A stretch of DNA of 64,000 bases from Romanomermis culicivorax (taxonomy: Eukaryota > Nematoda > Enoplea > Mermithida > Mermithidae), in the NCBI GenBank assembly GCA_963922205.1, contig CAWUHX010000043.1, positions 558,001 through 622,000 of the forward strand. The letters are read 5' to 3'. Made by a program: the position numbers and the translations under genes. Numbering within the stretch: position 1 is the first letter of the stretch; every line of letters begins with the position of its first letter. The notes under the pieces are model-generated. The model searched no databases. It was not told where the DNA came from and worked only from the letters and a program-made list of their open reading frames with translations. Shown here one piece after another: positions 1 to 53,819 of the stretch.

Positions 1-1688
1 CAACTTGATATCATAGAGTCTAAATGTTCCAAAACTGAATTATATTGATTAGACAAAATTTCATTTTGCCTAAAGCTAATCAGTTCAAGATGCTTTAGCA
101 TTTTTTGTACTAAAATATCAGGATCATTCTCCACAAAGCAAATTGGGGTGAACCCAGGAACATTTGTTGCAACAGCACATGAAACTGGTTGGTGTTCAGT
201 TATAAAAGTTAATTTTTCTGAATTCTGATGAGGTTTTTTTATAAGGAGTGCTTCAAAGTCATACACAGCATAGAATGGACAAAAATGTTGAGTTTCATTA
301 ACAAAAATCTCCAACTCTTTTAACTGGTCAAATATTGACTTTTTGACCATATATACGCCACCTGGGAATTTATGTACAGTTTCTCCCTCATGACAGTGAT
401 TTTTGGCATGGTCATTAAGTTTTTCCTTTTTTCTGAATAGTCTGTTACAAGAAAGACATGAATATCTCTTTGCATATTGATCTAAATTTACAATATAGCT
501 GTAATGAGCTTTTCCATTTTCAACAAAAGAAACATCCAAATTAAGAAGATTTTTATATTTTTGTACTACATTTTTCCAGCACACTGCTATTTCTTTTACT
601 ATGTCTAAATGGAAAACCTGTACATCTATATGAAATAATTCTTCAATCATTTCTAGATCAGTGTAGGGAACTCCAGGAAATGATTTTATAATTTCAGGAA
701 TTTTTTTCTCTTGACAATATTTGATAAAAAGTTTGAAAACAACATTTTTATTTTCAAAACTTCCAGTAAGGCATTGAGCTATGCAGCGAAACAAGCAAAG
801 ATTATCAGTAAATTTATTTCTTTGACTATCTTGGGTCATACATAAGAGGTTATTTTGTTGGTGAGAAACTATTTCTGGCAAGCAAAAATTTTTACACCCT
901 ACCACAAAATTTTTTTGAGGTATAACATAAAATTCAATATTGCTTATAAGATACAAAGCCCACTTTGTATCTGGGCGAGTAAATTTTTCCTCAAAATCAA
1001 TATTCCCCATAGTTTCAACTAATTGACTCAAATCCTGTCCATTTTTTATGAGAACTGGTTGATTTAGGATTGTGAAGTTATTGTGACATGCATACCAGTA
1101 TTTCAACTCACCTGATTCTTGGTTTTTTAATAGGCATCCAATCGCACCATTAATTTTAAAGCACTCTTTTTCACTTTTGTAAATATCGTCCAGCATGGCT
1201 TTGACATTGCCATGAACAGCTCCCCATTGATAATTGTATGTATGGTCCAACATATTTAATGTTGACCTGCTTGTTCTAATCAGGCGCCAATAATTTTTTA
1301 TTTCTTCTTGCACTTCCTCGGGATATTCAATTAAATCTGGTGGTGATTCCGGATCATCAGAAATGGTTTGTCCAGTTGTGCCAGGTATTTCACATCCATC
1401 GACATCCATTGGAAGGTTTTCTTCTGGTTTGATCATTAAACAACTGCCACTGTGCTTTGAGGCAAGTAAGTCTTTTGAGTTGGTAAAGTCAGTGGTACAA
1501 TATAGACAGTGGTTGTCCTCATGTTGCTTCTGATAGTGTTTCTTCAGGCCTTTTACCTGTGTGAAGACTGAAGCACACTGAGGACACCTGTACCGGCAAC
1601 CTTGATGAACTGCTCTTACATGTTCATTTAGATATCTCTCTTCACCAAACTGCCTTCCACATTCGACATAATTGATTTGTTTCTCCAT
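1..1688 (-). CDS. polB: Maverick type B DNA polymerase, N-terminal part
   Basis: One reading frame stays open from an ATG at 1688 to the left window edge, giving 562 codons with no stop. Residues 10-80 hold C2H2-like zinc fingers (for example C35, C38, H51, H56); the first finger lacks a clear first Cys. A central region with NLCLFRCIA and a later Cys/His segment (CLSCNRLF, then HAKNHCH) match the N-terminal architecture of one class of Maverick polymerases. The exonuclease I motif is YDFEALL, with D477 and E479. The polymerase palm motifs must lie beyond position 1. Protein-primed replication of the element is the family role. This domain layout differs from the PolB at 33933-38730, so the two elements belong to different lineages. 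No lesion is seen in the visible part. Confidence 0.9.
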   Translation of the reverse strand, partial: MEKQINYVECGRQFGEERYLNEHVRAVHQGCRYRCPQCASVFTQVKGLKKHYQKQHEDNHCLYCTTDFTNSKDLLASKHSGSCLMIKPEENLPMDVDGCEIPGTTGQTISDDPESPPDLIEYPEEVQEEIKNYWRLIRTSRSTLNMLDHTYNYQWGAVHGNVKAMLDDIYKSEKECFKINGAIGCLLKNQESGELKYWYACHNNFTILNQPVLIKNGQDLSQLVETMGNIDFEEKFTRPDTKWALYLISNIEFYVIPQKNFVVGCKNFCLPEIVSHQQNNLLCMTQDSQRNKFTDNLCLFRCIAQCLTGSFENKNVVFKLFIKYCQEKKIPEIIKSFPGVPYTDLEMIEELFHIDVQVFHLDIVKEIAVCWKNVVQKYKNLLNLDVSFVENGKAHYSYIVNLDQYAKRYSCLSCNRLFRKKEKLNDHAKNHCHEGETVHKFPGGVYMVKKSIFDQLKELEIFVNETQHFCPFYAVYDFEALLIKKPHQNSEKLTFITEHQPVSCAVATNVPGFTPICFVENDPDILVQKMLKHLELISFRQNEILSNQYNSVLEHLDSMISS

Positions 1689-2324: not shown

Positions 2325-2335
2325 TATAAAAGTTG
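2325..2335 (+). promoter_or_regulatory. TATAAAAGTTG motif, membrane-protein gene
   Basis: Exact TATAAAAGTTG 25 nt before the ATG at 2350 (37 nt before a second in-frame ATG at 2362). Its position argues against the upstream GTG start at 2299. Confidence 0.75.
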
Positions 2336-2349: not shown

Positions 2350-2577
2350 ATGAACAAAAAAATGGATGCTAACCACACTATTGAACATTTTCTAGCTTGT
2401 CTGGAAAGGCATAATGGGAAAACAGTTTTTACTGAGATATGGTATTGTGTGGCTCTATTGGCTATACTAACAATACTGACTCTATTGAAATTGTTAAGGA
2501 GATATTTGGAGAACCTGTTCACCAAAAAACCTAAAACTAGTACAAAAAGTGTCAGATTCAATCTTGCAGATGTATAA
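2350..2577 (+). CDS. Small single-pass membrane protein
   Basis: A 75-residue protein. The N-terminal half is polar and a strongly hydrophobic stretch at about residues 30-50 (WYCVALLAILTILTLLKLL) should span a membrane. It is followed by a basic tail rich in Lys and Arg, which suggests the C-terminus faces the cytosol or virion interior. The frame stays open upstream to a GTG at 2299, but the TATAAAAGTTG box lies inside that extension, so ATG 2350 (or 2362) is the better start. I do not recognise a family. Small membrane proteins are common in Maverick late gene blocks, and the second element has a different two-pass one at 45854. The gene ends 31 nt before the integrase start. Confidence 0.65.
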   Translation: MNKKMDANHTIEHFLACLERHNGKTVFTEIWYCVALLAILTILTLLKLLRRYLENLFTKKPKTSTKSVRFNLADV

Positions 2578-2588
2578 ATAAAAGTTTG
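2578..2588 (+). promoter_or_regulatory. ATAAAAGTTTG variant motif, integrase gene
   Basis: The sequence TATAAATAAAAGTTTG overlaps the end of the preceding gene. Its 3' part is one base off the element-1 consensus and lies 31 nt before ATG 2609. Confidence 0.55.
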
Positions 2589-2608
2589 ACAGCAGCATGC
2601 TTGAAAAA

Positions 2609-3397
2609 ATGAACAAGCTCTTTGAAAGCATATACTTTAACCCAAGTACGGGGTATTGTAGTGTTCAGAACCTGTTACGACAGGCAAAAGCTAGTAATCC
2701 CAGGGTCACTCTGCATTCTGTTAAGGAATGGTTGCAGAAACAGCCAACATATACTGTACACAAGTATGCTAGGCGCCATTACCCCAGGAATAATGTTCTA
2801 GTTACTGATATTGATGAACAGTGGCAAATGGATCTTGCAGACCTCAGTTCACTCGCCAGGCATAATGATGGATACAAATTCCTTTTAAATTGTATAGATG
2901 TCCTGTCAAAATTTGCATGGTCTGTACCCTTGAAAAATAAAAATACATCATCTATTTTGCATGCCTTTCAAACAATTTTGAAATCTGGCAGAAAGCCGCA
3001 AAAAATACAGACTGATGCTGGTACAGAGTTCACAAACAAAGCCTTCCAGGCCTTATTAAAGAAACTTGGCATTAGTTTTTTCATAACTGCTAGTGAAACT
3101 AAGGCTAGCATTGTTGAGAAGGGTTACACTCCCAATTGGAGTGATGAAGTTTTTGTGATTCGTGAGCAAAAAGCTAGATATCCTCCTGTATATACGGTAG
3201 AAGATCAGCTGGGAGAAGTCATACAGGGTGTATTTTATGAGCCAGAATTACAGAAAGTTGATGAGATTACAGATGTCTGCATTATAGAAAAGATTATACG
3301 AAAGAGAAAAAGGGCTGGGAAAACTGAATACTTTGTTAAATGGAAGGGTCACCCAGATAAATTCAATAGTTGGGTGACAGATTTGATAAAACTATAG
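2609..3397 (+). pseudogene. int: Maverick integrase with internal deletion
   Basis: The ORF encodes 262 residues of retroviral-type (rve) integrase fused to a C-terminal chromodomain. D75 (WQMDLAD), D136 (QTDAGTE) and E170 (SIVE) form the DDE triad. A chromo-like end is visible (EYFVKWKGHP, then FNSW). Compared with the 369-residue integrase at 44097-45206, roughly 100 residues are missing directly after E170; the frame is kept and rejoins before GYTPNWSDEVF. The lost part is the end of the catalytic core and linker, so the enzyme is very probably dead. An ATG at 2597 exists, but alignment to the second element's MNTLLSKLY start and the promoter spacing favour 2609. The normal role is insertion of the linear element DNA into the host genome. 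Confidence 0.85.
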
Positions 3398-3823: not shown

Positions 3824-3834
3824 TATATAAGTTG
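3824..3834 (+). promoter_or_regulatory. TATATAAGTTG variant motif, FW-motif gene
   Basis: One base different from the element-1 consensus and keeping the GTTG extension. It lies 73 nt before ATG 3897. Confidence 0.55.
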
Positions 3835-4229: not shown

Positions 4230-4350
4230 TATTGTAATAATTGTAATTAAATATTGTGATGAAAAATAAAAGACAAGAAAAAAATTAAAGGAGAAAAAAA
4301 TTAAAAAAAAATCAAAGCACAATTGCTGGTATTTCCAGCATGTTGCATGT

Positions 4351-4361
4351 TATAAAAGTTG
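4351..4361 (+). promoter_or_regulatory. TATAAAAGTTG motif, ATPase gene
   Basis: Exact consensus, 31 nt upstream of ATG 4382. It lies downstream of the alternative ATG at 4340, which argues against that start. Confidence 0.75.
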
Positions 4362-4381
4362 AGAATCTATTGAAAAAAAAC

Positions 4382-5005
4382 ATGGCTATAAAATTTAATC
4401 ACCCCTTTGCATGTATTGTTCCTGGCTCTACAAAAGCGGGTAAAACAACCTTTGTAAAGAATTTAGTACTAAATGTGAAGTACTTGATTGAACCCATTCC
4501 TGAACATATTCACTGGTTCTTTAGTGAGAAGCAGCCAGTCTACAATGACTTGTCTGGCAGAGTCAACTTCTATCAGGGATTACCTGACATGAACTTGATT
4601 AGAGAGCTCAGTCCTGCACCCCAACTTGTTATACTAGATGATCTCATGCAGGAAATGGCTAAAAATAAGCACCTGGACATTCTTTTTACTCGTGGATGTC
4701 ATCACATGAATGTGTCTCTGATACACATTGTTCAAAATGTTTTCTTTGAGGGTCTAAGAACATCTAGAATAAATGCAGAGTACCTTGTTTTGATGAAAAA
4801 TCCTGCAGATAGGCTCCAAGTAAAAACTTTGGCAAGACAGTTGTTTCCTGATAAAGTAAAGTAGTTTCTCGAGTCCTTTGAAGATGCCATGTTTAAACCA
4901 TACAGTTATATAATTGTTGATCTTTCTCAAACAACACCTGATAAACTTAGACTCAGAGCTGATATTTTCTCAAAATTTTCCACGATATATGTGCCAAAAG
5001 TATAA
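4382..5005 (+). pseudogene. Packaging ATPase (FtsK/HerA type) with in-frame TAG
   Basis: Maverick genome-packaging ATPase. Walker A is GSTKAGKT (residues 15-22), Walker B is VILDD (D86, D87), and the downstream IHIVQN strand holds the conserved Gln-Asn. A TAG at 4862-4864 interrupts the frame at codon 161. The same frame then continues without another stop to TAA at 5003-5005 and that part still aligns with the C-terminus of the ATPase at 41086 (ESFEDA, KPY, RLR). The lesion removes about the last 47 residues. The natural TAA lies inside the next gene's TATAAAAGTTG box. The start at 4382 is chosen from promoter position and alignment; ATG 4340 would place the box inside the gene. Confidence 0.85.
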
Positions 5006-5036: not shown

Positions 5037-5381
5037 ATGCCTTGTGATCATCTTAGACATAATATTGATTACATCAGGGTACTAGCTAAGGCTAAACCCA
5101 AGCAACGTAAAGCTATTATTAGCACCGCTGATCGTGAACTGAAACTTTGTTTGTGTGAATGTATACTCAACTTCCTCGAAGGCAATATAAAAGTTGACAA
5201 AAATACCTTGTATAAATTAAGTTCCCACAAGGGACCTTTACGAGTATTAGCAGATGAGAAAACAAGTCTCAGCAAAAGACGAGACATTCTAGAACAAAAA
5301 GGTGGATTTTTGCCTGTATTGTTGGCACCAATCTTAGGAATAGCTGGACAATTACTAGCTGATGCAATTATAAAAAGATGA
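5037..5381 (+). CDS. Conserved small Maverick protein with hydrophobic tail
   Basis: A 114-residue protein homologous to those at 42877 and 52604. It has a basic N-terminal helix pair (KPKQRKAII), a Cys-rich LCLCECILNFLEGNI segment, a basic middle, and a C-terminal GGFLPVLL hydrophobic stretch that could insert in a membrane. Proteins of this pattern are common in adintovirus/Maverick gene sets next to the structural genes; I do not know an experimentally assigned function. Start 5037 follows the promoter by 36 nt and aligns with the second element. Its stop overlaps the next start (ATGA at 5378). Confidence 0.75.
   Translation: MPCDHLRHNIDYIRVLAKAKPKQRKAIISTADRELKLCLCECILNFLEGNIKVDKNTLYKLSSHKGPLRVLADEKTSLSKRRDILEQKGGFLPVLLAPILGIAGQLLADAIIKR
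5186..5196 (+). promoter_or_regulatory. Internal TATAAAAGTTG motif
   Basis: Exact consensus inside the preceding gene, where it encodes Asn-Ile-Lys-Val-Asp. It lies 192 nt upstream of ATG 5378, the only candidate promoter for that overlapping gene. It could also be a coincidence of coding. Confidence 0.45.
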
Positions 5382-6106
5382 TGAATACAAATAAAATGAT
5401 TCTTGTACCGCACGACATTGGTCATAGGGAAGACATAGCAGCTAATGTAATGACTGCTTTGGATACAGAAATGAATGACATTTTAACTAATAAGTCATTG
5501 CCCTCTGACAAAAAGATAATCTTATACAATCAAGTGTTGCACAGATATAGGCAGGCTACGCAGGATCAAACCAGACCTTATGAGCTGACTGTTAGTGAAC
5601 CTGTTGCAGAACACCCCATTCCTGATTTGGAAGAAATAACACCAAAGCAAAAAAAGCCAGACACTGCTGAAAGCACTATTGATGTGACCCCGAGAAAAGA
5701 TGTTCTGTATGAAAAAACCATGAAAATTGTACCAAAAAAGTGGCATAGTCAAGCTAAAATGTTATATGATTATGCTAAAGATAATCCACACATGGAGTGG
5801 TCGGATAAAGGAGAAATGATTCTGAAAGGCACCAAAATAAGTGGAACCAACATTGTTGATTTGATTTCTGATGTGGCGAGAGTTGGTCCGAGGCGCCAGC
5901 AAGCAATAGGGTCAGAATTGTTTGTAAAGAACCTCTTAAAGGAGAATGTGCCTCGAGATCTTTTTGTAAATAAGTCCAGGCTAAATGTTGGAAGTGAAAG
6001 TGATGAAACATTTGCTTCCCCGAGTGGACCCGTAGATGGTAAAAAAATTAAGGCACCCAAAAGCATTACACCAAGGCCTAGATGGTTAGAATTTGGAAAA
6101 GCATAA
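5378..6106 (+). CDS. Conserved Maverick structural-block protein (ILVP type)
   Basis: A 242-residue protein homologous to those at 43232 and 52959. The N-terminus carries a KMILVP-like signature, followed by a coiled-coil-like acidic region (LDTEMNDILTNKSLPSDKK, then YNQVLHRY), a Pro/Glu-rich linker, and a globular C-terminal part containing GTKISGTNIVDLI. The same three-part layout is seen in the second element (GKLIEGSHIIDLL). It is a recurrent adintovirus/Maverick protein of unassigned function, always in the capsid block. It starts within the stop of the upstream gene and no lesion is seen. Confidence 0.75.
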   Translation: MMNTNKMILVPHDIGHREDIAANVMTALDTEMNDILTNKSLPSDKKIILYNQVLHRYRQATQDQTRPYELTVSEPVAEHPIPDLEEITPKQKKPDTAESTIDVTPRKDVLYEKTMKIVPKKWHSQAKMLYDYAKDNPHMEWSDKGEMILKGTKISGTNIVDLISDVARVGPRRQQAIGSELFVKNLLKENVPRDLFVNKSRLNVGSESDETFASPSGPVDGKKIKAPKSITPRPRWLEFGKA

Positions 6107-6112
6107 AAGTTG
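6102..6112 (+). promoter_or_regulatory. CATAAAAGTTG variant motif, PX gene
   Basis: Overlaps the upstream stop codon, 41 nt before ATG 6143. Differs from the consensus only at the first base. Confidence 0.65.
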
Positions 6113-6142: not shown

Positions 6143-6565
6143 ATGAGACAATACTTTAATCCGGAAGATTATGCAACTTGGCTTCAGTACTATACTGAAC
6201 AAGCTGAACAAACTGGCTATGGTTTCAAAGGCTTCAAAGGCACACCCTATCAACGTGGAGGAGGTCTAGGAGGCTTCTTTAGATCATTATTCAGAATGGC
6301 CATTCCTGTTATTAAGTCAGCTGCTGGCCATATTCGTAAGCAAGCGCTATCTACAGGTGCACATATTGCTGGAGATTTAGCCGAAGGTCGATCTATTAAA
6401 GAGTCTCTAGAAGAACATGGCCGAGCAGCACTCTCCAAGTTGGCCCACAGTGCGGGAGAGGCCTTGCAGACTGGAAGAGGCTTGGGGACTAGACCAAAAG
6501 GTATAAAAGTTGAGAAAAATGATATATTCTCAAAGAAAAAGAGAAGGAAACATGGCTCTAATTGA
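6143..6565 (+). CDS. PX-like virion core/minor protein
   Basis: A 140-residue basic protein. After a Tyr-rich N-terminus it has the signature GGFFRSLFRMAIPVIKS, then KQALSTGAHIAGD and KESLEEHGRAAL, and ends in a strongly basic tail (KKKRRKHGSN). This pattern matches the adenovirus pX/pVI-like core proteins of adintoviruses and aligns with the 178-residue protein at 56921. The likely role is DNA condensation and/or capsid-membrane interaction in the virion. The C-terminal coding region contains the MCP promoter motif (codons for GIKVEK), and the gene overlaps the MCP start by 14 nt. Confidence 0.8.
   Translation: MRQYFNPEDYATWLQYYTEQAEQTGYGFKGFKGTPYQRGGGLGGFFRSLFRMAIPVIKSAAGHIRKQALSTGAHIAGDLAEGRSIKESLEEHGRAALSKLAHSAGEALQTGRGLGTRPKGIKVEKNDIFSKKKRRKHGSN
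6502..6512 (+). promoter_or_regulatory. TATAAAAGTTG motif, MCP gene
   Basis: Exact consensus inside the PX coding region, 50 nt before the MCP ATG at 6552. Confidence 0.7.
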
Positions 6566-7853
6566 TACAATTTCTAGCATTAGTACAAAGTCTGAATTGG
6601 ACTTTTTCACTGTACCTCCCACACAAGTAATAATTAAACGAGGCTACTGGGATGAAGTTAACCCCATAAATCCTATCACAAATGATGGTCCATACGAATT
6701 TCGTATACCTCCAGATCCTCACATGATTCAGCTTAGCAAAAATTATCTGTACATGACCTTGAAAATTACTTACACTGTTCCTGCTGGTGGAGCTGCACCA
6801 GTAATTGCACCTATCAATCTGATTGGTAAAGCATTTTTCTGACAAGTGAAGCTCTTCCTGAATGGTCGTCTTATTCATGATAGTGGGGATAAGTATGCTT
6901 ACAGAGCATTCTTTGAAACTGATTTAAATTTTGGTTTTGATGCTAAAAATAGTCACTTACAGTCTTCTTTGTATACTATGGAAGCTGGTCCTAAAATAGA
7001 TACTGCTGATTGCCAGGGTTTTAAAGACAGAGTAAAGTACTTTGAAAATAGTCAAACAGTTGAAATAACAGCTCCTCTTCATATTGATCTTCTAATGCAA
7101 GATCGATATTTACTCAGCAATACTGAGCTCAAACTGGAATTGATTCGCAATAGTAATCCATTTGTATTACAGTGTCCAGCTGGTGATGCAGAAAATGCAA
7201 AATTGGAAGTTTCCCAGATGAAACTCTTCATCAGGAAAGTTAAAGTGCTCGACAGTGTTGGATTGGCTCTGGAGAAAGCAATGTTAAAGACATCAGTCAA
7301 GTACCCAATTAGACGAATCCAAATGGTGAATCTTCATATTGCTAGTACAACGCAATCTACACCTCTGAATACTCTACTCACTGGTCAGTTGCCACGTAGG
7401 ATGATTATAGCATGTGTCGATGCGGATGCATATCGTGGAGAAATAAAAAAATCTCCATTTAATTTTAAATGTTACAGTATAAGCGAAGTCAAAGTTGTCT
7501 CTGGTGGTCAAGCTTTCCCAGCAACTCCACTAAGACTTGATTTTGCCAACAACAAATATATTCGAGCGTATGATCAGCTCTTTGAAACTCTAGACATGGC
7601 TAAGGATAACAAAGGGAATGGCATTAGCAGACTTAATTTTAAAAATCGACAGTGCTACTTTGCCTTCGATTTTATACCTGATGAAGATGATAGTGGACAT
7701 TGGGACTTGATTAAAGATGGTTCCACAAGTATCGAATTGACATTTGCTGATAGGATACCTGATGCAGGTATAGAAGTTATTGTTTATGCAGAATTTGACA
7801 ATTTGATTATGATCGATAAAAATAGACACATCTTTAATGACTATACTGCATGA
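6552..7853 (+). pseudogene. Major capsid protein (double jelly-roll) with in-frame TGA
   Basis: Maverick hexon-like MCP, 433 codons. The N-terminal signature SELDFFTVPPTQV, then PYEFRIP and LSKNYLYMTLKI, is typical. The homologue at 57454-58851 aligns throughout, including DSGDKYAYR and PLNTLLTGQLPRR. A TGA at 6840-6842 interrupts codon 97, directly after GKAFF; the same frame continues to the natural stop at 7851-7853. Unless TGA is read through, only a 96-residue N-terminal fragment can be made. The gene overlaps PX by 14 nt and the protease by 4 nt (ATGA). Confidence 0.85.
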
Positions 7854-8343
7854 ATACCTCTGAAATCTACATCTTGATCAATAGAGATCAAGCTCTCAGG
7901 CAAATCTTCAATGGGGTATTTCGTATAGACTGTTTACCACCTCTTGACACTGTACCCGCAGCATTGGTTGTAAATCTGGACAAGCAGGATGAACCTGGTT
8001 CACACTGGGTAGCTCTGTTTGTCAATAAAAAACATGCATGTTGTTATTTTGACAGTTACGGCCTGGAACCACCTCAACAGCTTAGGAATTACATCAAGAC
8101 TATATCTACTTCTTACAAGTGCAATACCAAATGTGTTCAACAGTACTTGACTGCTACATTGGTCAGTTATGTGTATACTTTCTCGTGTGGATAGTCAGAG
8201 GTATAAGAATGAGGGATATTGCTGCTAGTTTGGAAAAAAGTTATGCTGATGAATTTGTCACTGGCTTCATCAACAGTCTCTTTAGAACAAATACTCCCAT
8301 ATATGGTGATGCATTTTTATTTGAACAGCTCAACAGAATATAA
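7850..8343 (+). pseudogene. Adenain-like cysteine protease, frameshifted
   Basis: Maturation protease of the adenain (C5-like) family. The first frame encodes 114 residues with His52 (SHWVA), Asp68 (FDSYG) and a Gln near 97-98, then leaves homology and stops at 8192-8194. Homology resumes in another frame (open over 8119-8343), with a VYFL strand and a C-terminal helix ending at 8343. The frame change falls at about 8155-8175, exactly where the catalytic Cys-Gly should be, so the nucleophile is lost. The intact version is at 45193-45684 (C105). No consensus promoter is seen; it may be translated from the MCP transcript. Confidence 0.8.
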
Positions 8344-8349
8344 AAGTTA
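8339..8349 (+). promoter_or_regulatory. TATAAAAGTTA motif, penton gene
   Basis: One base off the consensus, overlapping the protease stop, 23 nt before ATG 8362 (38 nt before a second in-frame ATG at 8377). Confidence 0.65.
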
Positions 8350-8361: not shown

Positions 8362-9159
8362 ATGACATATCAAAAAATGGATTTTTCACAGTTTTATGTA
8401 ACATTACCGAGCAATGCTCAGAGTGATCCGAGTAACTCGGCTTCAAATTTTAGTATCAGGTTGCCTCATAGATTGATTTTGCAAGGTGAATGGGAATGTG
8501 CACTTTGTGAATTCATCTACCCAAATACGTGGTTCAATATAACACCTAGTGATAGTGTAATAAAATTTTATGATCTTCAGACCAATACTAGGCAATTACT
8601 AAAAGTACCTTCTACAAGGTATGAATCTATAATAGATTTAATTGAAGCTATTCAACAATCCATCAGGTTGTTGAGTGAACAGGAAAAAGTTCCATATAAT
8701 GAGTTTATCGAATTTTCATACAGGAGATTAGCCAGAGCAGTTGTCCTGAAAGTGAACTTGACTAGAATCAAGAGCATAAAATTAAGTGATCCTTTACTCT
8801 ACCTGTTGGGCTTTGAGAAATCACAACTAGAAACAACTTCATCTGAAAAATTGAAAATTGCTGCTGCACACCCTGCTGATATGAAGGCTGGTCTCGAAAC
8901 TATGTACGTTTATTGTAACATTATTGAACAACAGATTGCTGGTGATATTTTAGCCCCCCTCCTCCGTATTGTTAATATTGAGGGAGCTTTTGGTGACATT
9001 ATAGATAAGATATATATAGCTCCTCACTACTTGCCTGTACTGGTAAAAGATATCGATTCTATCGAAATTTCAATTAGAACAGATCAAGACAAACCTATAA
9101 AATTTGTCACTGGTAAAACATTTGTGAAGTTACACTTTAGAAAGCGAAGTTTATTCTAG
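8362..9159 (+). CDS. Penton-like minor capsid protein
   Basis: A 265-residue single jelly-roll minor capsid (penton) protein. The family signature FYVTLPSNA, then FSIRLPHRLILQGEWE and YPNTWFN is present, followed by VYCNIIEQQIAGD and LLRIVN near residues 190-210, and HFRKR at the end. It aligns along its length with the 305-residue protein at 55869. It would occupy the five-fold vertices of the capsid. The ORF is intact although MCP, ATPase and protease beside it are broken. The start could also be the second Met (8377). Confidence 0.85.
   Translation: MTYQKMDFSQFYVTLPSNAQSDPSNSASNFSIRLPHRLILQGEWECALCEFIYPNTWFNITPSDSVIKFYDLQTNTRQLLKVPSTRYESIIDLIEAIQQSIRLLSEQEKVPYNEFIEFSYRRLARAVVLKVNLTRIKSIKLSDPLLYLLGFEKSQLETTSSEKLKIAAAHPADMKAGLETMYVYCNIIEQQIAGDILAPLLRIVNIEGAFGDIIDKIYIAPHYLPVLVKDIDSIEISIRTDQDKPIKFVTGKTFVKLHFRKRSLF
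9096..9106 (+). promoter_or_regulatory. TATAAAATTTG variant motif, TBP gene
   Basis: One mismatch to the element-1 consensus, inside the penton coding region and 66 nt before the TBP-like ATG at 9162. Confidence 0.5.
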
Positions 9160-9161: not shown

Positions 9162-9674
9162 ATGCAAGTACAAAACATTACTATAACAGCTGAACTTGGC
9201 TGTCGACTCAATTTGGACTCACTTGTTAAAAAATTGGATGGCTCTAAACTGACTATAGGAAAATTCAGGTCACTGATTTGGCACCTCCATGATCCAAAAT
9301 GTTGTCTACTATTGTACGAAAATGGCAAGGTCGTATGTGTGGGCATTAAGGCAACTCAGCAGGCTGTGAAAAGTATAGATTATGTAGCAGAAATACTGCT
9401 CAAACTCGGTTATCAGCCAAGACCCAGGAAATTTAAAATGTGCAATGTTGTTGGGTCATACGCCCTAGATCACTGTATCAATGTTGAGGAATTCTATAAC
9501 ACTCATAGGGGTCAATGTGATTATTCTCCTGAATTATTTCCTGCACTGAAATATACAATTAACAAGCAAGGCTTATGTGCATTGATTTTTCACAATGGTA
9601 AAATTATTATTACAGGAGCAAAGACCTACGGTGAACTGGAGAAGAACTTCAAAGAGTTACTTGTCAATTTTTGA
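9162..9674 (+). CDS. TATA-binding-protein homologue
   Basis: A 170-residue protein that reads as a complete two-repeat TBP core with nothing added. Repeat 1: VQNITITAELGC and NGKVVCVGIKATQQA. Repeat 2: FKMCNVVGS, YSPELFPALKY and IFHNGKIIITGAK. The central DNA-contacting Asn of each repeat is kept (N5, N95). Three of the four DNA-kinking Phe positions are Phe (F35, F126, F143); the fourth is Tyr (Y52). TBP binds the minor groove of TATA boxes to start transcription. The gene lies 2 nt after penton, inside the Maverick block, with no intron. A host TBP gene would be expected to have introns and a much higher identity to animal TBP. The ORF is undamaged. A role on the element's own TATAAAAGTTG boxes is my inference. 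Confidence 0.88.
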   Translation: MQVQNITITAELGCRLNLDSLVKKLDGSKLTIGKFRSLIWHLHDPKCCLLLYENGKVVCVGIKATQQAVKSIDYVAEILLKLGYQPRPRKFKMCNVVGSYALDHCINVEEFYNTHRGQCDYSPELFPALKYTINKQGLCALIFHNGKIIITGAKTYGELEKNFKELLVNF

Positions 9675-9766: not shown

Positions 9767-9946
9767 ATGGAGCCTTGCAACTTATGTGGAAAAATTCCTA
9801 TGCATTCTGTGCATTATGCTGTGTGTAGATATGTTCAAGCTGGAAGATATAGAGAATTGGGTGCTGATCCTTCACCAATTAAAAGAACGAAAAGGCTGAT
9901 GAAGAAAGAATCCACTTGGGATCACAACTATACTAGGAAAAAGTAA
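9767..9946 (+). CDS. Tiny Cys/His protein
   Basis: A 59-residue ORF with a TATA-like box upstream. CxxC (C4, C7), H16 and C20 could bind one zinc. The rest is basic (KRTKRLMKK, YTRKK). I do not recognise it. Its size, promoter spacing and place at the end of the collinear gene block support it as real. A poly-A-rich stretch follows the stop immediately. Confidence 0.55.
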   Translation: MEPCNLCGKIPMHSVHYAVCRYVQAGRYRELGADPSPIKRTKRLMKKESTWDHNYTRKK

Positions 9947-10054: not shown

Positions 10055-10624
10055 GCAAATGAGTACACAATTTCTGTTGATATATAGCATGACTTTCCTA
10101 TTTAGGCTAGCTATGTAAAGCTTGAAGCAGCAGCTTCAGCTTTATTAGCTAGGCGAACTTCCCTCCCCCACCCCCAATGGGCGACGGCAGCGGCGATGCA
10201 TATTAACAAATAACATAAATGGTAGAGCCTACACCAATTGAAATTTTCAGAACCCCTCGCACAAAATTTGGGCTTTTGTCCTAAATGGGTCGTGTTGGGT
10301 ACCAATCGATAGATCTCATTGAGCTGATTCCGAAAAGTACCATGTATGTCACACTATCTCAAGTTTTGATGGAGATGTGGGTGGGCCAAGTTATGGCAAC
10401 TTTTTTCTTTCTACACCAGGTGTGACGTCATGCTTTTTTCCAGCCGGAAAAATGACGTCATAGTAGTCGGCGGAAGGTCGGCTATGTTTTGTGTGTCGGG
10501 GAGGTTGTGATTTTTTTTCCAAGTCCAACGCCTATGTTTAACATGGGCCGGGGAGCTTTTTACCCTCAGGCCCCTCCTCTATACTACTCAGTAACCTTTT
10601 AAATGATGCATTCGGAGTACGATA
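10055..10624. other. Intergenic region, no gene seen
   Basis: Mixed-composition DNA with short C-runs (CCCCCACCCCC near 10160) and no supported ORF. The right border of element 1 lies somewhere in or before this stretch but I see no TIR partner within the window. Confidence 0.5.
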
Positions 10625-11745
10625 ACGGCCGCTTGAAAAAATTTGTTATCACTTGAAAAAATTTGTTACCACTTGAAAAAATCGTTACCATCGAACATGA
10701 TGCACGAAATTTTTTTCAAAATGCGTCGCAAAAATGTCATCAAGTTTTTCGATTTTCAACATTCTTTTCAAGTGCATCGCGTTTTTTCGAGATAATCTTG
10801 TAACAATATCATCTTGAAAAAAAATCAAGATCCCATCTGGAAAAAATTAAGATCCCATCTTGAAATAAATCGAGATGGGCGACACATCAAAGGATGAAAA
10901 TCTCTGGAACTAGCCAATCAAGGGCGTCGCTCCACCTCCTATGTTTATATAGGGGTGGCTTCAAAGTGGATTTCTGAAGTCAGGCTTGCTTGCGGAAGAC
11001 GCCTTTCGTTTCATGGTGGGGAATAGTGGGGGGTTATTTTGCACGGGGAATCGGGTGGACGTATTGATTTTTCATAAAAAATTTTATTTCTAAAGATTTT
11101 TCAGAAAAACGTTAAAAATGCTTGTTTCTCGCCCAAAATTCAGTAATTTCGGAAAAGGATCTAAATTTTCGTTTCTTTTTGATGTTCCTCAAAACAGCCG
11201 ACGAGGTCAAAATTTTAGATTAACAAGCATTCTTGTTGTTTTTTTTAAATCTCGAGAAATACAAATTGTTATGAAAAACCAGTATGTCCGTCAGATTCCT
11301 GTGAAAAATAACCTTCCCCCTCTACCATGCTCAGTAAAAACCAAGGGCGCCCTCCACCAGCAAGCCGTGACCTCCCGCACAAATAAAAATAGGAGGCGGA
11401 GCAACGCCTTTGATTGACTAATTTCAGAAATTCTCATCCTTTAATGAGCCACCCATCTCGACTTTTTTCAAGATGGGATCTTGATTTTTTTTGAAGATGC
11501 CATTTTGATTTTTTTCCAGATGCCGTCTTAATTTTTTTTCAAAGTTATATTGAAAAAATTGCGATGCACTTGACAACAAGGTCGAACATCGAAAAACTCT
11601 TATATGTTGATTTTTTGCGATGCATCTTGAAATTTTTGCAATGCATCTTGAAAAAGTGTTGTGCATCACGTTTGAAGGTGACGATTTTTTCACGTGGCAA
11701 CAAATTTTTTCAAGTGGTGTTGGCTTTTTCCAAGTGGCTCTTCTT
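10625..11745. mobile_element. Non-autonomous DNA transposon with long TIRs
   Basis: The arms 10625-10935 and 11395-11745 are imperfect inverted complements. They are full of repeated CTTGAAAAAAT and GATGCATCTTGAAA units (the core reads cttgaaaaaatttgttacca on one side and its complement on the other), and both pass into a shared GGCGTCGCTCC/GGAGCAACGCC block. The core, 10936-11394, has no convincing ORF. A 9-bp direct repeat AAATGATGC lies at 10601 and 11804, but not exactly at the arm ends, so I do not claim it as a target duplication. A truncated copy lies at 31876-32121. Confidence 0.75.
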
Positions 11746-14008
11746 TTATTCCGTAGATACGGCGTAGAGTTTGAGCTCTCGTGTAAACCAGCCTATTTTT
11801 CCCAAATGATGCGTTTGGTTTTTGACCAGTGTCGAAATGGGACTTGAGTTGGATAAAGAAATATAATAAATAGAATTGAAAAGAGACCTAATTAGTCACT
11901 CGCTAATTCACCTAATCTGGCCGAAACCTTAGGTAGAAATAGTTTGCAACAGTTCGGTCAATCCCAATTTCAACAAAGGATCAGCTGCTTTCGTTCCAAG
12001 GAACTGCAGATGATCAAATAACACTCAGGTAACTTCCAATCAACGGGCAAAACCGAGAAGTCAGGCCGAGAATTGAGTTGTAAATGTAGACTTGCACCCA
12101 GGGTGGCTCTCCAAAAATCCGGGTGTAACGACCAGATTTGTGTGAGGTACTTTACTTCTAACCAATCGGTCGATACGGCGGGGACAAATAACGGGACGGG
12201 GGCGATAATATACGGCTTTACAATACTCGACGGCTGCTTTAGACGTCGATACGACAATGATACGATAACGCGGCGAGTATACACGGCTTAATTGCTTCCG
12301 AATAAAAATGAGACTCGCTCTCAAACCAATGCTTGCAAATACGGGCGCGGGGTCGAAAAATTGAACGATACAAGAATGAATAAAATCACGCTTTGCTTCT
12401 TCTTTTATACGGTGATTCTGACCAATCCCTGGGCGTCGCGGGAGGTCGAGCTTCTGTCCATCTTCTTCCGCCAATCGTCGTTTCCTGCTACGCTTTTTAT
12501 GCTGTCTTAATTACGCCTCTCTAATGCTTTTCTGGTACTGTATGCTTTCTGTGCTTCGCTTGCTTTCTACGGTGGGCTTGGCCACACCTTTGTGCTTCTG
12601 TGCATGCTTCCTGTATCGGTTTCTCTGTATACACATGTTTTGTGGGGCCGCCGCTACCGTTACACTTGAGACTACTGTACGGCGGGGCTTCTACGCATTT
12701 TACTGTGTGCAGGTGTTGTTTACGATTTTTACTGGGGATTACGGTAGCTGTGGAATGTGTAGTTTAGTGTGGGTTCTAGGGGAACAGCTGCCGTTTGTGC
12801 AAATTAATTAGGGCGTCTTAATTGGGCTACCGGGGTGTGAACGGATCAAAATAAAGTACTTCACGTAATTTTGTAGGAATGTTTGGGTGTGAATCCCAGA
12901 CACCCTTGAGACGATAAAATGTGAAAATTAATAATATTTAATAAATGTCTATCACATACAGTATGCTACATATTTACAGTACTGCTTTAGCAGGTACGTC
13001 ACACGGGGTCTAACCTGCGTTCCCTCCACTGCAGGATAATCTAATATTGTCCAGGCGTCGGACGTTGTATTTGGGCGAAGAAATCCACAAATACAAACAT
13101 ATCAATAAAATAATATAATGGTCAGTCAGGCTCGCCGATTTCTTTATAAAAATATAAACAAAGAATCTTCGCAACCATGAGATGGACTATTTCCATCCCC
13201 GACACCGGCACTCATAACAGGGAAATTCTATTTTTTTAATTGATCAACTTCTACCCATTATTTTGTAGATTTCAAGATGCAATTTCAGCAAAAAAATAGT
13301 TTTTTATTGATAATTTATTAAAGGCGTCGACATGCCGTGCACTCCGACGTTTTCCGCAATGCTACTCAAGAAGTTATTTTTTCGACGTTCGTTTTCTGTT
13401 TTTCTTTCACGAAGTGACCACACGAGAAAAGTAAGTTTTTTGGATATTATTTCAAGTTCAGACAACAAAAATCATCGCTGAGATGAACATTGACAACGGC
13501 TGGAATGAATTATGATACGTGTTCATTTCTTTCGAGGAGCAAGTTTTTTCCTAGTCCATTCATCTTTTTATCTTCTAATGATTGAAATATTGCTTTGAAT
13601 TGGGGTTTTGTGGATCAAGTGCTATTTCTGCTCTGTATCATTCAAATCATTTTTTGCCAACCGAACAACAGTGAAACATAACTTATTTCAAAAGGCTAAT
13701 TAATTAATTAATAATCCTTCTTAATTTCAAATTTAGCTTTTATACATATATCACTTTAGTGTTAGAACATACCAGGAAATGCTTTAGGGTGAAAATTCCT
13801 TTACAAAACATGCTGTATGGTCCATTTGACAGCCAGAGCTGTTATGTTACACCAGTTTTTATTCCCAAGTGAACCTTATCTACACTGAAATCCGCATGGA
13901 TGATAGTGATGGTAAATATTCGTCATCTGCTATGGGATCTAATTGTAGTAAATATATAGTCTGTTAAAGTCTTCTAAATTGGAAAACGGCAAAAACTGTG
14001 GGACTGGA
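11746..14008. other. Intergenic region, no supported gene
   Basis: Contains a moderately GC-rich stretch (about 12050-12840) with a TGTAACGACC at about 12124, a TATA-like box near 12414 and AATAAA near 12850. This could be a degraded solo LTR, but I could not find matching ends. ORFs here look non-protein-like. Confidence 0.35.
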
Positions 14009-27900: not shown

Positions 27901-30596
27901 TTAGAAAGTACGTTGACACCCTTGACTGGCACATAATGCCCGTATTGAACGCGGACGGTTACGAATATAGTAGGACGAGTACAGTAACCAGGGTAAGCGA
28001 TTACACTTGGTTTAATCGTAGATTTTGACTGTCATGTTTTAGGTCAGGCTGTGGAGGAAGAATAGGAAACCAGATCCTTTTTGCCAGCGTCAGTCTAACT
28101 GTTGTGACGGAGTTGACCTCGTAAGTTTCGTCATTTTCAATATGATAAATAAGCACAATTTTTGAATATATTTATCTTACCGTATCTGGAAAGTTTGAGC
28201 ACGGAATTTTGCGCAAGCTTTCCTCTATACGTAAAAAAAGTAGAAAAATTCTTGTTCAGAATAGAAATTTCGACTTCAGTTGGGGTCAAGCCGGATCGAG
28301 CAACTATCAGTGCGAAGACCAATATTCCGGTTTGCACGCCTTCTCGGAACCGGAAACGGCAGCCGTTCGGGACTATTTGACGCCCAGGGCTGCGAGTTTC
28401 GGGGCGTTCATAACGTTGCATTCTTATAGTCAGATTTTCATATACCCGTTCGGGCACGCGATCAAAAGCTATCCTGTTGACGTTGCAGATCTGGTAAAAA
28501 AATTTGAAGTAATGTATCTATGATTCGAATTCTAGGTTTTGCGTAGTACGGTTGGTGACGTTGCTAAAAATTTACTTTTTACTGTAGATTGTTGATAGAA
28601 CGATTATTGATCGACTCTTCCGGTGCTAACCATACACGTCATAGGGTTGAGTAGGAAGGTTTAAACCCGTCCATTTGGGGCTAAAAATACCCAGGACCAA
28701 AAATAATTGGTCAAATACCCCTTAATTTCTAGAAAATGAGAAAAAATGATCAAAATTTACGTTTTACTGCAAAAATCGGTCTTTTTCGAGGGAATTTTCG
28801 CGTATACCCCTTACCAAAAAGTTCCTCCGGATCATAACTCAACAAACACATTTACTGGACGGAATACGTCCTATAAAATCCAGCAAAGTATAAGTTTTCT
28901 GTACAGTAATTTTGTAGACATGGTTATAGTTGCTGCCGGGTTTAGACTATTTACTGCGAAAAATATTGTGGTTACATTTTAGAGAAGCAGTGCATGAAAG
29001 GTTAAATGGATTCCATCAATCTGACTATACGAATTACGAATCTAGGGCTAACATTTGAATATCCAATACGATGAGATAAATCATGAAAATTCCGTGACTT
29101 TCACAGTAAATGACCTTTGATCTCCTCATTATATTGGATTTTTTCTCAAATGAGCCTCGGAAAGAGTTCACGTAAATACAAAACAATCTGCTTACGCGAC
29201 TGTCTTTTTTCTCAGATTGACTTTCGCAGTTATGGTCTGTTTTTCTTGAAATGCTTCTAAACAATGAAAGTGGAAAGCAGGTAGTATTTCAGATTTTCAC
29301 GATTTTCTGGCAAACAGTATATCATATAGGACTAGAAATTTGTGAACTTACTGACCTAACCTTCAAAAATTTTTCGAGTGAAAAATTTTACAGTAAGAGC
29401 TCTATGTAAGCGATTTTGACGACAGTAATGATTTGTGTCACTTTTCTATTTGGAAGCATTTTATAAAAAACAGATTATAGGAATATAATATGAAAAAAGA
29501 AAATGATTATTTGCGATGCATGGTCGCCTCCTGTTTACGGATTCTTTTGGATTTTCTGGTATTCCGAGGTTCATTTGAGACTGAATAGATTTAAGTGCCA
29601 CTTAGTCCTTCGATAAAAAAAATTTATTTTTGAAACGTTTTATGGTTTTTATAATCTGTTTTTAAGTGCCTCCAGAGTGAAAAATAAGAAAAATCAGGAG
29701 TTATCAAAATCGTTTTCATCAAGCGTTTACAGTAAAATACACTTAAAAATTGCTAGATGTTAGTTAAGTATGGTCACAAATTTGCAGTTCAGTGACATGC
29801 GGTTCAAGGGAGAATCGTAATAATATAAAATCGTAAAAAATTTGTTCAATCCGCAAATTGATCAGCAAGTGGATGAATATCCAAAGAGTTCCCTGATTCC
29901 GTTCGAATCTAAGCAGTGACTTTTTGGTTAACGATTAAGATTTCCATTCTTTGTTGAAGTACTTCGATCCCATTTTTTACAGAGCAGTATGTTTTCTGTT
30001 GGACTTGTGAAGTTTGCACTAGAATTCAAGAACTACAAGAGATTTTGCGTTGTATGCAGTGACCTCGTACCTATCTGGGCTTTGAACATCGTATTTCTTT
30101 CAAATTTTGTTGGTCGTTGAAAGAGGGCATATACAGCGTGTTAGTAAATTTATGGAATCATATTTCTTTCAACCAGCATAAAGTTGCCGTCAAAGCCAAG
30201 AACGCCATCTTGGCCTCTTCCAGCAACAAGACTCGCTATATCGTGGGTACCGGCGCCGACACGTTGTACCCGGCCAGTGGCGGTTCGGTGGATTGGGCCA
30301 AACACGCTTTGGGCATCAAATATTCCTACTTGTTGGAACTGCGCCCGTCAGAAAGCGGTATAAACGGTTTTTTGTTGGACGAAGCGGAGATTTCACCCAC
30401 AGGCCGTGAAACGTTCGACGGCTTGAAAGTTGTGGCCGACGCCGTTTTGGCCATGGACCCGCCATCGGCGTCGCCGGTTGCCAGGAATCCGTTGCAACCG
30501 GACATGAGTAAGGGAGAAATTCCGGAAATGAATCACAGGGTTCATGGTGTCGTAACTTGGGGCGACGGTTATCGTCATTTCCCACAAATCCAGTGA
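24970..30596 (+). CDS. Secreted zinc carboxypeptidase (M14A), tandem paralogue
   Basis: Hand-spliced 10-exon gene, 493 residues. Exons: 24970-25055, 26346-26427, 26484-26620, 26744-26858, 26916-27017, 27688-27792, 27870-27992, 28043-28120, 28260-28493, 30177-30596. Several exon lengths (137, 102, 123 nt) and junctions match gene 1. Signal peptide (FYLLLLFVTIIHV), propeptide, HARE, NADGYEY, NRNFDF, LHSYSQ and ELRPS are in order, so zinc ligands and the catalytic Glu are kept. The residue before the DW anchor is Val, which suggests CPA-type hydrophobic specificity rather than the CPB type of gene 1. There is no ShKT domain; the protein ends in a short polar tail. Exon 2 is the least certain because the propeptide diverges. 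Confidence 0.85.
29232..29478. mobile_element. MITE (TAGTCTGTTTTT family), copy A in intron 9
   Basis: About 247 bp with inverted ends (GGTCTGTTTTTCTTGAAATGC and GCATTTTATAAAAAACAGA), flanked by TA. It lies in the 1.7-kb intron of carboxypeptidase gene 2 and is nearly the same as copy B. Confidence 0.7.
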
Positions 30597-38730: not shown

Positions 38731-39537
38731 TATAAAAATTATCTAAACTAGAAAATATAAAAACTATAAACTAGAAAAATAGAAAACAACCTATTCATTA
38801 AAAACTTATACGGTAATAATAATAATAGAAAATTTTTATAAATCAGCAAAAACTATTAATTTTATGGTAGAGATTTAATTATTGTTTACGAGGTTAATGT
38901 AGTACTTTTCTTTTTTATGATGGGAAAGCTTTAAAGACCTCTATAACTCATAAACACGTGCCCATATCATTTCTTTAGCTTATTTTATTAGCATATTACC
39001 AGTTAAAACCAGTTGAAAACCTGTTTTACTGTACAACCCTAGTATTTTTGTTTTGATTCTTGAAGCTATAAAATAACTGTAATAGCTGCTTATAACCCTG
39101 TTGCACCATCTTTTCTTTTTATGTGGAAAAGCTTTAAAGACCATTATAACTCATGCGCACGTGGCTATATTGCTTCTATAGCTTTGACCTTGATAATTAC
39201 TATAACACATAAAACACATATATTTTTCTAGCTTTGATCTCAAAGGTTACCGTACCACATAAATACATTTTATTTTATTTTTGTAGAACATAGCTCCTCC
39301 TCTCATATACTCCTCAGAATAGTAGAATACTGTAGGATATATGTCTTGAATATTTATTATGCTTATAACTCCTCCTCTTACAGCTATAAGCTATATATCT
39401 TGGTTATTTTATTATAACTATAACCTCCTTTTACTCAAAATTTTGAACACTTTATACATTTATCTGTTTTGTTGCTACAAAAACTACTCGCTTCTTCTCT
39501 CTCTCTCTCTTTAATATTTCTTCAAGAATTTTCAAAA
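38731..39537. other. Divergent intergenic region of element 2 (copy A)
   Basis: AT-rich, with the phrase AAAGCTTTAAAGACC twice (38930s, 39130s), CTATAAAATAACTGTA, and several CTCCTCCTCTTA/CTCCTCCTCTCA boxes at 39295-39430. Probably the two-way promoter for PolB and the 384-aa gene. No TATAAAAGTTG motif. Duplicated at 48455-49262. Confidence 0.5.
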
Positions 39538-40760: not shown

Positions 40761-41085
40761 AAGTTTTGCTTACATTCATTCATTCATTCATTCATTCATT
40801 ACAGCTTGTATGTTTTAATTAGCTATATTTTGATTGCTTATGTAATTGCTGACGTATTTGCTTGTTATATATATACAATTTCATACATACATACATTGCG
40901 CGTATATTTTGCATACAGTAATGCTATTCTATTTTATATAATCATCTATCTTTATGTTTTTACATGCGCACTGCTTTATATTGTAATTTTGATAATTATG
41001 TAACATTTTGTTTTAAATAATAAAAATCATTTTAAAAATTGTTCAAGTAAAAAGGTGGTTGGTTTTTGTTGTTGTCAAAAAAGAG
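40761..41085. other. Spacer with ATTC repeat
   Basis: Six ATTC units at about 40773-40799 (five in the other copy), then AT-rich DNA with an AATAAA at about 41019. No gene seen. Confidence 0.5.
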
Positions 41086-41742: not shown

Positions 41743-41800
41743 TTCATCATTTTTACAAAAAACTTTATACAGGTTAGTCGGATCCTATTATTTTAGCGAT

Positions 41801-42163: not shown

Positions 42164-42331
42164 AGCAGTAAATTTCAAAACTTGTACATCAATGGAACTA
42201 GATTACGATATATTGATACGATAGCTTTATTACATAATCAGAAAAAAATATTATACCCTTCATCAGTCTAGTCGAGAATTTTGAAGAGGTTGGTCGTTTT
42301 TCTATAATTCGTTTGTTTTGTGACAATTACA

Positions 42332-42794: not shown

Positions 42795-42876
42795 TGTAAT
42801 ACAATAAATATTTCAATGTTTACTCATCATTTGGTCATTATTGTAAAATTTTTTTGTACTGTACGGTCTGTTTTGT

Positions 42877-43230: not shown

Positions 43231-43231
43231 A

Positions 43232-44092: not shown

Positions 44093-44096
44093 AGCG

Positions 44097-51470: not shown

Positions 51471-51528
51471 TTCATCATTTTTACAAAAAACTTTATACAG
51501 GTTAGTCGGATCCTATTATTTTAGCGAT

Positions 51529-52957: not shown

Positions 52958-52958
52958 A

Positions 52959-53815: not shown

Positions 53816-53819
53816 AGCG

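What the first reader, a model, noticed from the sequence alone, without database searches (positions are those of the whole stretch)
9162..9674. A TATA-binding protein homologue encoded by a Maverick
The 170-residue ORF is a two-repeat TBP core with both central Asn (N5, N95), three of four intercalating Phe (F35, F126, F143; Tyr at the fourth), and both GK(V/I)(V/I) strands. It sits 2 nt after penton in a Maverick block, intronless and intact. TBP homologues are known in some large DNA viruses; I know of none described in Mavericks/Polintons or adintoviruses.
Basis: partly seen in the sequence, partly recalled or inferred. Interest (0 to 1): 0.92.

Follow-up and report, generated by a model that had tools for sequence, protein, structure and literature searches.

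The report
Maverick elements carrying their own TBP
A family of virus-like transposons in this animal-like genome carries its own diverged copy of the cell's core promoter-recognising protein (TBP), beside its capsid genes and with repeated TATA boxes in front of its genes, which suggests that the element runs its own promoter-recognition system.

Summary
Confirmed. ORF 9162-9674 is a two-repeat TBP (PF00352, 5e-38); its AlphaFold2 model (pLDDT 94) matches TBP crystal structures at TM 0.91. It is no processed host copy: the genome's own TBP exons are 78-80% identical to human TBP, this one 34%. It is a regular gene of a Maverick lineage: 151 genomic matches; penton ends just upstream in 42 of 42 distinct class A/A2/C loci; dN/dS 0.16-0.23.

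New: the extended TATA box TATAAAAGTT (one mismatch allowed) precedes 10 of 13 genes here, and 0 of 13 gene starts in two neighbouring TBP-less Maverick copies. Of the first 100 listed genomic TATAAAAGTTG sites, 51 lie within 8 kb upstream of a TBP copy on its strand, none on the other. A diverged class uses AAAGTATAAAAG.

Best reading: a virus-encoded TBP that marks the element's promoters for host Pol II. Against: class D has TBP without the box; binding and expression are untested. The window copy is partly decayed. Viral TBPs are known elsewhere; my searches found none reported in Mavericks.

The parts
9162..9674 (+). TBP homologue, 170 aa, open
   Evidence: PF00352 5.2e-38; AF2 pLDDT 94.3, PDB 1qna_A TM 0.91
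8362..9159 (+). penton-like capsid protein, 265 aa, stop 2 nt before the TBP start
   Evidence: no Pfam hit; 35% to the corresponding ORF of the TBP-less Maverick; upstream of TBP in 42 of 42 distinct class A/A2/C loci
8339..8349 (+). TATAAAAGTTA, 23 nt before the penton start
   Evidence: unchanged in 16 of the 18 rows printed, out of 34 loci tried (L015 differs by one base; the L061 row shows another stretch), several rows being identical copies
6502..6512 (+). TATAAAAGTTG, 50 nt before the major capsid start
   Evidence: TATAAAAG at 47 nt (L033, L034) and 64-65 nt (L031, L032)
6102..6112 (+). CATAAAAGTTG, 41 nt before ORF 6143
   Evidence: exact TATAAAAG at 48-62 nt in L031, L032, L034, L035
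5001..5011 (+). TATAAAAGTTG, 36 nt before ORF 5037
5186..5196 (+). TATAAAAGTTG inside ORF 5037, 192 nt before ORF 5378; promoter role uncertain
   Evidence: same offset in L034
4351..4361 (+). TATAAAAGTTG, 31 nt before the likely ATPase start at 4382
3824..3834 (+). TATATAAGTTG, 73 nt before ORF 3897
2577..2586 (+). AATAAAAGTT, 20 nt before the integrase start
2325..2335 (+). TATAAAAGTTG, 25 nt before ORF 2350
201..211 (+). TATAAAAGTTA inside the minus-strand gene, before no plus-strand gene; probably not a promoter
6552..7853 (+). DJR-like major capsid protein, interrupted by an in-frame TGA at 6840-6842
   Evidence: PF21738 at 21.7 bits, below its cut-off of 27; 43% and 53% for the two pieces to the TBP-less Maverick
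7850..8343 (+). adenain/Ulp1-like protease, frameshifted near 8190
   Evidence: PF02902 and PF00770 below cut-off; overlapping ORFs; 38% to the TBP-less Maverick's
4340..4864 (+). A32-type packaging ATPase, ended early by TAG at 4862-4864
   Evidence: PF04665 1.2e-6; comparison with the 230-aa homologue
2597..3397 (+). retroviral-type integrase with chromodomain, internally shortened
   Evidence: PF00665, PF00385; 266 aa against 414 aa
1..1688 (-). long open frame running off the window start, taken as the PolB side of the element (inference)
   Evidence: (C2H2 fingers only); relative in L033, 31%
2350..2577 (+). small membrane-protein-like ORF, 75 aa
   Evidence: conserved in L034
3509..3784 (+). 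ORF, 91 aa, two CxxC pairs, no Pfam hit
   Evidence: conserved in L032, L034, L035
3897..4229 (+). conserved ORF, 110 aa, no Pfam hit
5037..5381 (+). conserved ORF, 114 aa, no Pfam hit above cut-off
5378..6106 (+). conserved ORF, 242 aa, no Pfam hit
6143..6565 (+). conserved glycine-rich ORF, 140 aa, no Pfam hit
9767..9946 (+). conserved small ORF, 59 aa, after TBP

Best explanation
The ORF is a functional gene of a Maverick (Polinton) lineage that encodes its own TBP. SHOWN by sequence: TBP identity and predicted saddle fold, retention of most DNA-side residues, fixed place beside penton in classes A, A2 and C, purifying selection, great distance from the host TBP, and recurrent extended TATA boxes 15-85 nt before most genes of the window element. 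INFERRED: the viral TBP binds these boxes (TATAAAAGTT in A/A2, AAAGTATAAAAG in C), bends the DNA as TBP does, keeps part of the TFIIB-contacting stirrup and so recruits host TFIIB and Pol II, since the part of the element seen here has no RNA polymerase gene. Its helical outer face has diverged most, which may free it from host regulators that use that face (TFIIA, NC2, Mot1, TAF1; recalled). In class A it follows penton directly and has no TATAAA in the 170 nt before it in 4 of 5 elements, so it is probably made with the capsid proteins, either amplifying late transcription or being packaged for the next round.
For: TBP identity. Not a host copy. Penton-TBP adjacency: 6 of 6 elements read over about 10 kb, 42 of 42 distinct loci out of 64. 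Selection: mean dN/dS 0.16 over 25 distinct open copies, ML omega 0.226, and 0.182 with four A2 copies; 49 of the first 69 rows are stop-free (counted). Strand segments keep 37 of 83 host TBP positions, helix segments 15 of 62 (segment limits from recall). Motif: 7 exact TATAAAAGTT in 64 kb, all on the plus strand of this element; with one mismatch before 10 of 13 gene starts against 1.8 for random ATGs, 8 of 13 in L034; exact TATAAAAG before 6 of 10 in L032; TATAAAAGTT before 0 of 8 and 0 of 5 starts in the TBP-less copies. Genome: 51 of the first 100 listed TATAAAAGTTG sites upstream of a TBP on its strand, 0 on the other strand, 0 downstream, about 0.25 expected. Co-expression in class A.
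Against: Class D has TBP, but the one class D stretch read over 10.7 kb has no TATAAAAG at all. TATAAAAG is an ordinary strong TATA box that host TBP should bind too, so the boxes need no viral TBP. Motif and TBP could simply be inherited together: A and C form one group in the tree, so there are few independent events. Genome-wide, TATAAAAGTTG (1067) and AAAGTATAAAAG (516) are rarer than their reversed controls (1634 and 1127). 9 of 23 TBP places on C1-C13 have no exact site upstream. Of the 7 exact window sites one lies inside the minus-strand gene and one inside an ORF. L033 and L036, covered only in part, show 2 and 1 exact TATAAAAG on the gene strand, and L031 3. In A one Phe is Tyr, and in A and C one minor-groove Thr is Val, which could weaken DNA binding. 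No expression or binding data.
Confidence: 0.62

Rival explanations
1. The TBP is a decoy or dominant negative: it occupies host TATA promoters or sequesters TFIIB and so damps host transcription, while the element's TATA boxes are read by host TBP.
For: TATAAAAG is a canonical TATA box (recalled); the first Glu of the recalled TFIIB-contacting stirrup is changed in A, A2 and C (S, T, V) while the second Glu and the Leu remain.
Against: Does not explain why the extended boxes are dense in A/A2/C elements and missing from the TBP-less copies of the same window.
Confidence: 0.15
2. Motif and TBP are both old features of the A/C lineage without a functional link; the TBP serves another role, such as DNA bending during replication or packaging.
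For: Class D has TBP without the motif; few independent lineages; TBP sits in the capsid gene cluster.
Against: The Asn and Phe positions that read and kink TATA are kept or changed to a like residue in the A and C proteins; TBP folds are not known as general architectural proteins (recalled).
Confidence: 0.17
3. A processed or recent copy of the host TBP gene caught in a dead Maverick.
For: The window copy carries several broken genes; the ORF is intronless.
Against: 34% identity to human TBP where the host gene's exons have 78-80%; 151 matches in the genome, with penton beside TBP in 42 of 42 distinct loci; dN/dS about 0.2.
Confidence: 0.01
4. On origin: the lineage took its TBP from a large DNA virus rather than from an animal host.
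For: TBPs occur in giant viruses and others; Maverick TBPs do not nest in animal TBPs in the best trees.
Against: Long branches; a group of A and C with the host TBP is not rejected (p-AU 0.12); most viral TBPs in the fold search are only 8-22% identical.
Confidence: 0.3

Closest known systems
Cellular TBP (TFIID subunit), PF00352
   Same: two-repeat saddle, both central Asn, three to four intercalating Phe, length of the core
   Different: about 34% identity to host and human TBP, no N-terminal extension, diverged helices, changed residues at recalled base-reading positions, encoded by a mobile element
TBP mimic of beta- and gamma-herpesviruses (ORF24/UL87/BcRF1) with TATT late promoters
   Same: a virus-encoded TBP-like protein tied to a virus-specific extended core promoter of late (structural) genes; passages of PMC7498053 seen; a weak fold match to herpesvirus U58/UL87 proteins
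   Different: the herpesvirus protein works with at least five other viral proteins on a TATT box followed by RVNYS; here a bare, clearly homologous TBP and a TATAAAAG core
TBPs of giant viruses, mirusviruses, nimaviruses (WSSV) and TBP-like proteins of asfar-, irido- and ascoviruses
   Same: TBP or TBP-like protein encoded by a eukaryotic DNA virus
   Different: large genomes, many with an RNA polymerase of their own (recalled); Mavericks are about 15-20 kb (recalled) and the part seen has no polymerase gene
Mavericks/Polintons and adintoviruses
   Same: rve integrase with chromodomain, A32-type ATPase, DJR-like capsid, penton-like protein, adenain-like protease
   Different: no TBP named in the papers that I could search; the other Maverick of the window has none

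Membership tests
TBP (PF00352) | two tandem TBP repeats above the curated cut-off | tested here: met
   129.2 bits, two stretches, cut-off 22.9; one class C and two class D proteins 141-150 bits
TBP (PF00352) | saddle fold | tested here: met
   AF2 pLDDT 94.3; TM 0.91 to TBP-DNA crystal structures. The alignment given to AF2 was made of other TBPs; without it pLDDT was 36.7
TBP (PF00352) | two central Asn and four intercalating Phe | tested here: met
   both Asn, three Phe and one Tyr in the window; four Phe in class C; one Phe is Ile in class D L071
TBP (PF00352) | binds and bends TATA DNA | not testable with these tools
   needs protein
Maverick/Polinton | retroviral integrase, A32-type ATPase, DJR capsid, penton, adenain-like protease | tested here: met
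   capsid and protease matches lie below the Pfam cut-offs in the window copy and rest on likeness to the second Maverick
Maverick/Polinton | protein-primed PolB | tested here: inconclusive
   the window shows only an N-terminal open frame with C2H2 fingers; the second Maverick has DNA_pol_B_2 at 5.2e-15, and the class D stretch matches that at 49%
Maverick/Polinton | terminal inverted repeats and target-site duplication | not tested
   the left end lies outside the window and was not fetched
Herpesvirus-type viral preinitiation complex | TATT box | tested here: not met
   the repeated box is TATAAAAG; the comparison is of how it works only
Herpesvirus-type viral preinitiation complex | five partner proteins | not tested
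   no search for them beyond Pfam of the element's ORFs

The most novel reading that the evidence does not exclude
Mavericks evolved a compact, self-contained core-promoter system: a TBP of their own whose specificity diverged together with element-specific extended TATA boxes (3' extension TATAAAAGTT in one class, 5' extension AAAGTATAAAAG in another), which calls host Pol II to the element's genes and escapes host TBP regulators. In class A the TBP is made with the capsid proteins and may be packaged.
Probability: 0.42. Interest if true: 0.88.

Novelty: new variant of a known kind. Interest (0 to 1): 0.8.

Why it matters
A general transcription factor encoded by a transposon-sized element would show how Mavericks can be expressed in animal cells without a polymerase of their own. 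The genome offers a natural experiment: TBP-bearing and TBP-less Mavericks side by side, plus TBP classes with different boxes, so co-evolution of a TBP with its promoter can be tested directly. It also supplies TBPs far from cellular ones that are under purifying selection.

Tried and rejected
Processed host TBP copy: rejected. Close relatives by sequence in the protein collection and in IMG/VR: none with the single window protein; the element's capsid piece also found none in IMG/VR. TBP profile in IMG/VR: 8 contigs at 25-30%, and in the stretches fetched (8.6-16.5 kb) no Maverick gene but TBP was found by tblastn. Profile of Maverick TBPs only: 435 proteins at E <= 1e-5, 120 listed; P0099 leads clearly (215 bits) and P0123 slightly (193; next 186), from metagenome contigs of 1.4 and 1.0 kb; both join class D in the tree (95/95). 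Single-sequence fold: useless, pLDDT 37. Monophyly of Maverick TBPs: best tree yes after two rows were dropped, support only 70/39. Altered-specificity TBP mutant (recalled changes at yeast positions 194, 203, 205): Maverick TBPs differ from host at 194 and 203 in 6 of 6, but no held paper confirmed the mutant, so it stays a lead. tRNA, Rfam (gathering threshold) and PHROGs: nothing. The iqtree report gave no omega; it was read from the log. A penton search of the whole genome did not complete.

Full report
WHAT IS THERE. ORF 9162-9674 (+) encodes 170 aa. Pfam-A gives TBP in two stretches at 5.2e-38. Sequence search of the PDB gives human TBP at 3.3e-28 over residues 2-165 and 34 further TBP sequences, plus one unrelated chain at E 0.95. 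With 52 aligned TBPs AlphaFold2 gives pLDDT 94.3; the best PDB matches are TBP-DNA complexes at TM 0.91, 33% identity. Without an alignment the model was poor, pLDDT 36.7.

THE ELEMENT. To the left lie, on the plus strand, an integrase with chromodomain, an A32-type ATPase, a DJR-like capsid protein in two pieces, a C48/C5-like protease and a penton-like protein; on the minus strand a long open frame with C2H2 fingers runs off the window, which I take as the PolB side by its place. Most of these genes match a second Maverick present in two copies at about 39-48 and 49-59 kb; the capsid match is in the second copy only (where coordinates count from 10001). That Maverick has a DNA_pol_B_2 domain at 35000-35764 and no TBP: no tblastn hit with the TBP in 10001-64000 at E 0.01. 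The window copy of the TBP element is damaged: shortened integrase, early stops in the ATPase and capsid genes, a frameshift in the protease. TBP, penton and the minus-strand frame are open.

NOT A HOST COPY, AND NOT ALONE. The genome behind the window (359 Mb, 595 contigs) gave 151 matches to the TBP at E <= 0.001, with 150 of 275 first-look candidates scored, so this is a lower bound and includes fragments. A human TBP query found the genome's own TBP gene at C95:239373-239989, exons 80% and 78% identical to human; the other matches, 24-38%. I sort the copies by identity to the window protein into A (about 80-100%), A2 (about 50-69%), C (36-39%) and D (about 30-34%); the borders are mine. 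In six elements read over 10 kb (L031-L036), TBP lies after penton in 6 of 6, with other Maverick genes where the stretch covers them. Of 64 loci, 42 remained after removing those identical over 800 nt, all of classes A, A2 and C, and in 42 of 42 penton ends within 300 nt upstream on the same strand; in 34 the computed gap is 5 nt, the stop codon included. Of seven further loci read over 2.1-2.7 kb, L070 (class C) has penton upstream, and the six class D loci (L067, L068, L069, L071, L072, L073) showed no class A or B penton there. In L067 and L071 a frame like the N-terminal part of Maverick PolB genes lies on the opposite strand (by eye and recall). In the one class D stretch read over 10.7 kb, TBP is followed by a small ORF and then a penton-like ORF (25% identity, 1.5e-8), with a PolB-like gene on the other strand (49% to the second Maverick's PolB piece).

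SELECTION. Among 25 distinct open class A copies mean dS is 0.204 and mean dN 0.033, ratio 0.16. A codon model gives omega 0.226 for these and 0.182 with four A2 copies. Of the first 69 rows, 49 have no stop (labels copied by hand); under random change at 5-10% per site 28% to 9% would stay open, a rough guide only. Contrary cases: close pairs in classes C and D have ratios of 0.27 to 0.73, and one of 1.66 on seven changes, as decaying copies would show.

PROMOTER BOXES. TATAAAAGTT occurs 7 times exactly in the window, all on the plus strand of this element; one of them (201) lies inside the minus-strand gene and one (5186) inside an ORF. With one mismatch, 10 of 13 gene starts have it 15-85 nt upstream; random ATGs give 1.8 on average and none of 1000 draws reached 10. 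L034 (A2) shows 8 of 13. L032 (C) shows 2 of 10 for this form but 6 of 10 for exact TATAAAAG, with 8 copies of GTATAAAAG on the gene strand and 0 on the other. The two TBP-less copies show TATAAAAGTT before 0 of 8 and 0 of 5 starts, and TATAAAAG with one mismatch before 1 of 8 and 1 of 5, as by chance (the starts were ATG ORFs picked by me). L031, L033, L035 and L036 show 3, 2, 4 and 1 exact TATAAAAG on the gene strand and 1 each on the other. Boxes stand at like distances before the same genes in different elements: penton 23-50 nt in seven elements, capsid 47-65 in five, ORF 6143 48-62 in four. Over the genome TATAAAAGTTG has 1067 exact matches, fewer than its reversed control (1634), so it is not enriched overall. 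But of the first 100 listed (contigs C1-C13), 51 lie within 8 kb upstream of one of 23 TBP places on the same strand, 0 on the opposite strand and 0 downstream, against about 0.25 expected; 14 of the 23 places have at least one. AAAGTATAAAAG has 516 matches against 1127 controls; five of the 100 listed lie upstream of the TBP at C1:739452 on its strand, and others lie at class A promoters or far from any TBP listed (by eye). The class D stretch has no TATAAAAG on either strand.

HOW IT MAY WORK. From an alignment with host and human TBP, using yeast residue numbers and roles from recall, the Maverick proteins keep both Asn (the first is not covered in the A2 row, which I had cut at an inner Met), three or four intercalating Phe, and the second Glu and the Leu (Ile in L071) of the TFIIB-contacting stirrup; A, A2 and C have Val for one minor-groove Thr; all six differ from the host at positions 194 and 203. 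Host identity is 37 of 83 in strand segments and 15 of 62 in helix segments for the window protein. So the DNA side is kept better than the outer face. I infer that the protein nucleates Pol II initiation at the element's own boxes. In class A/A2 there is no TATAAA in the 170 nt before TBP in 4 of 5 elements (the window has TATAAAAT at 66 nt, within penton codons); both class C elements have TATAAATA 72 nt before the ATG, and L067 has one at 46 nt. This suggests co-expression with penton in class A.

ORIGIN. In the tree of 42 rows the A and C TBPs form one group (98/98) and class D with two metagenome proteins another (95/95). With two rows dropped, a single Maverick group is found with weak support (70/39), and a group of A and C with the host TBP is not rejected (p-AU 0.12), nor one with host and nematode TBPs (0.15). 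Origin from a host or from another virus is open.

KNOWN OR NEW. Virus-encoded TBPs are known: WSSV (PMC4506587, passages), mirusviruses (PMC10132985, passages), giant viruses and others in the fold search. A TBP mimic with a dedicated extended box is known from beta/gamma-herpesviruses (PMC7498053, passages). Searches pairing TATA-binding protein with Polinton or Maverick, Polinton with TATA and virophage with TATA-box binding protein listed no Maverick TBP; term look-ups in six papers found none either, one of them reporting TBPs in putative mirusvirus-like elements of an alga. Listings on adintoviruses and nematode Mavericks were seen without a TBP search inside each paper. Two papers that I looked for by DOI were not held. 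I therefore call it a new variant of a known kind.

Noticed in passing
window about 39000-59000; genome-wide: The TBP-less Maverick looks like a massive recent expansion: 126 capsid matches scored out of 1280 first-look candidates, all 96-100% identical, 123 of 126 without a stop.
   Followed up: partly
L067, L068, L069, L071, L072, L073, L083: A further Maverick class (D) carries TBP at another place in the gene order; the one stretch read long enough lacks TATAAAAG.
   Followed up: partly
proteins P0099 and P0123: Two metagenome TBPs of 171-172 aa from contigs of 1.0-1.4 kb score best against the Maverick TBP profile and group with class D, so such elements probably occur elsewhere.
   Followed up: partly
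window 10613-11753: Large interrupted inverted repeat (arms of 108 and 103 nt, 85% and 77% complementary) just right of the element, perhaps another mobile element.
   Followed up: no
window 1796 (-): TATAAAAG without the GTT extension 108 nt before the start of the minus-strand gene; the two gene sets may use different box extensions.
   Followed up: no
window 30117-30596: ORF that looks like part of a host zinc carboxypeptidase (from recall, not searched).
   Followed up: no
window 47526-47625: A run of 100 unknown bases in the first TBP-less Maverick copy, beyond which its capsid gene is not found.
   Followed up: no
window 2597-3397: The integrase reading frame stays open across an internal loss of roughly 85 residues.
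   Followed up: no
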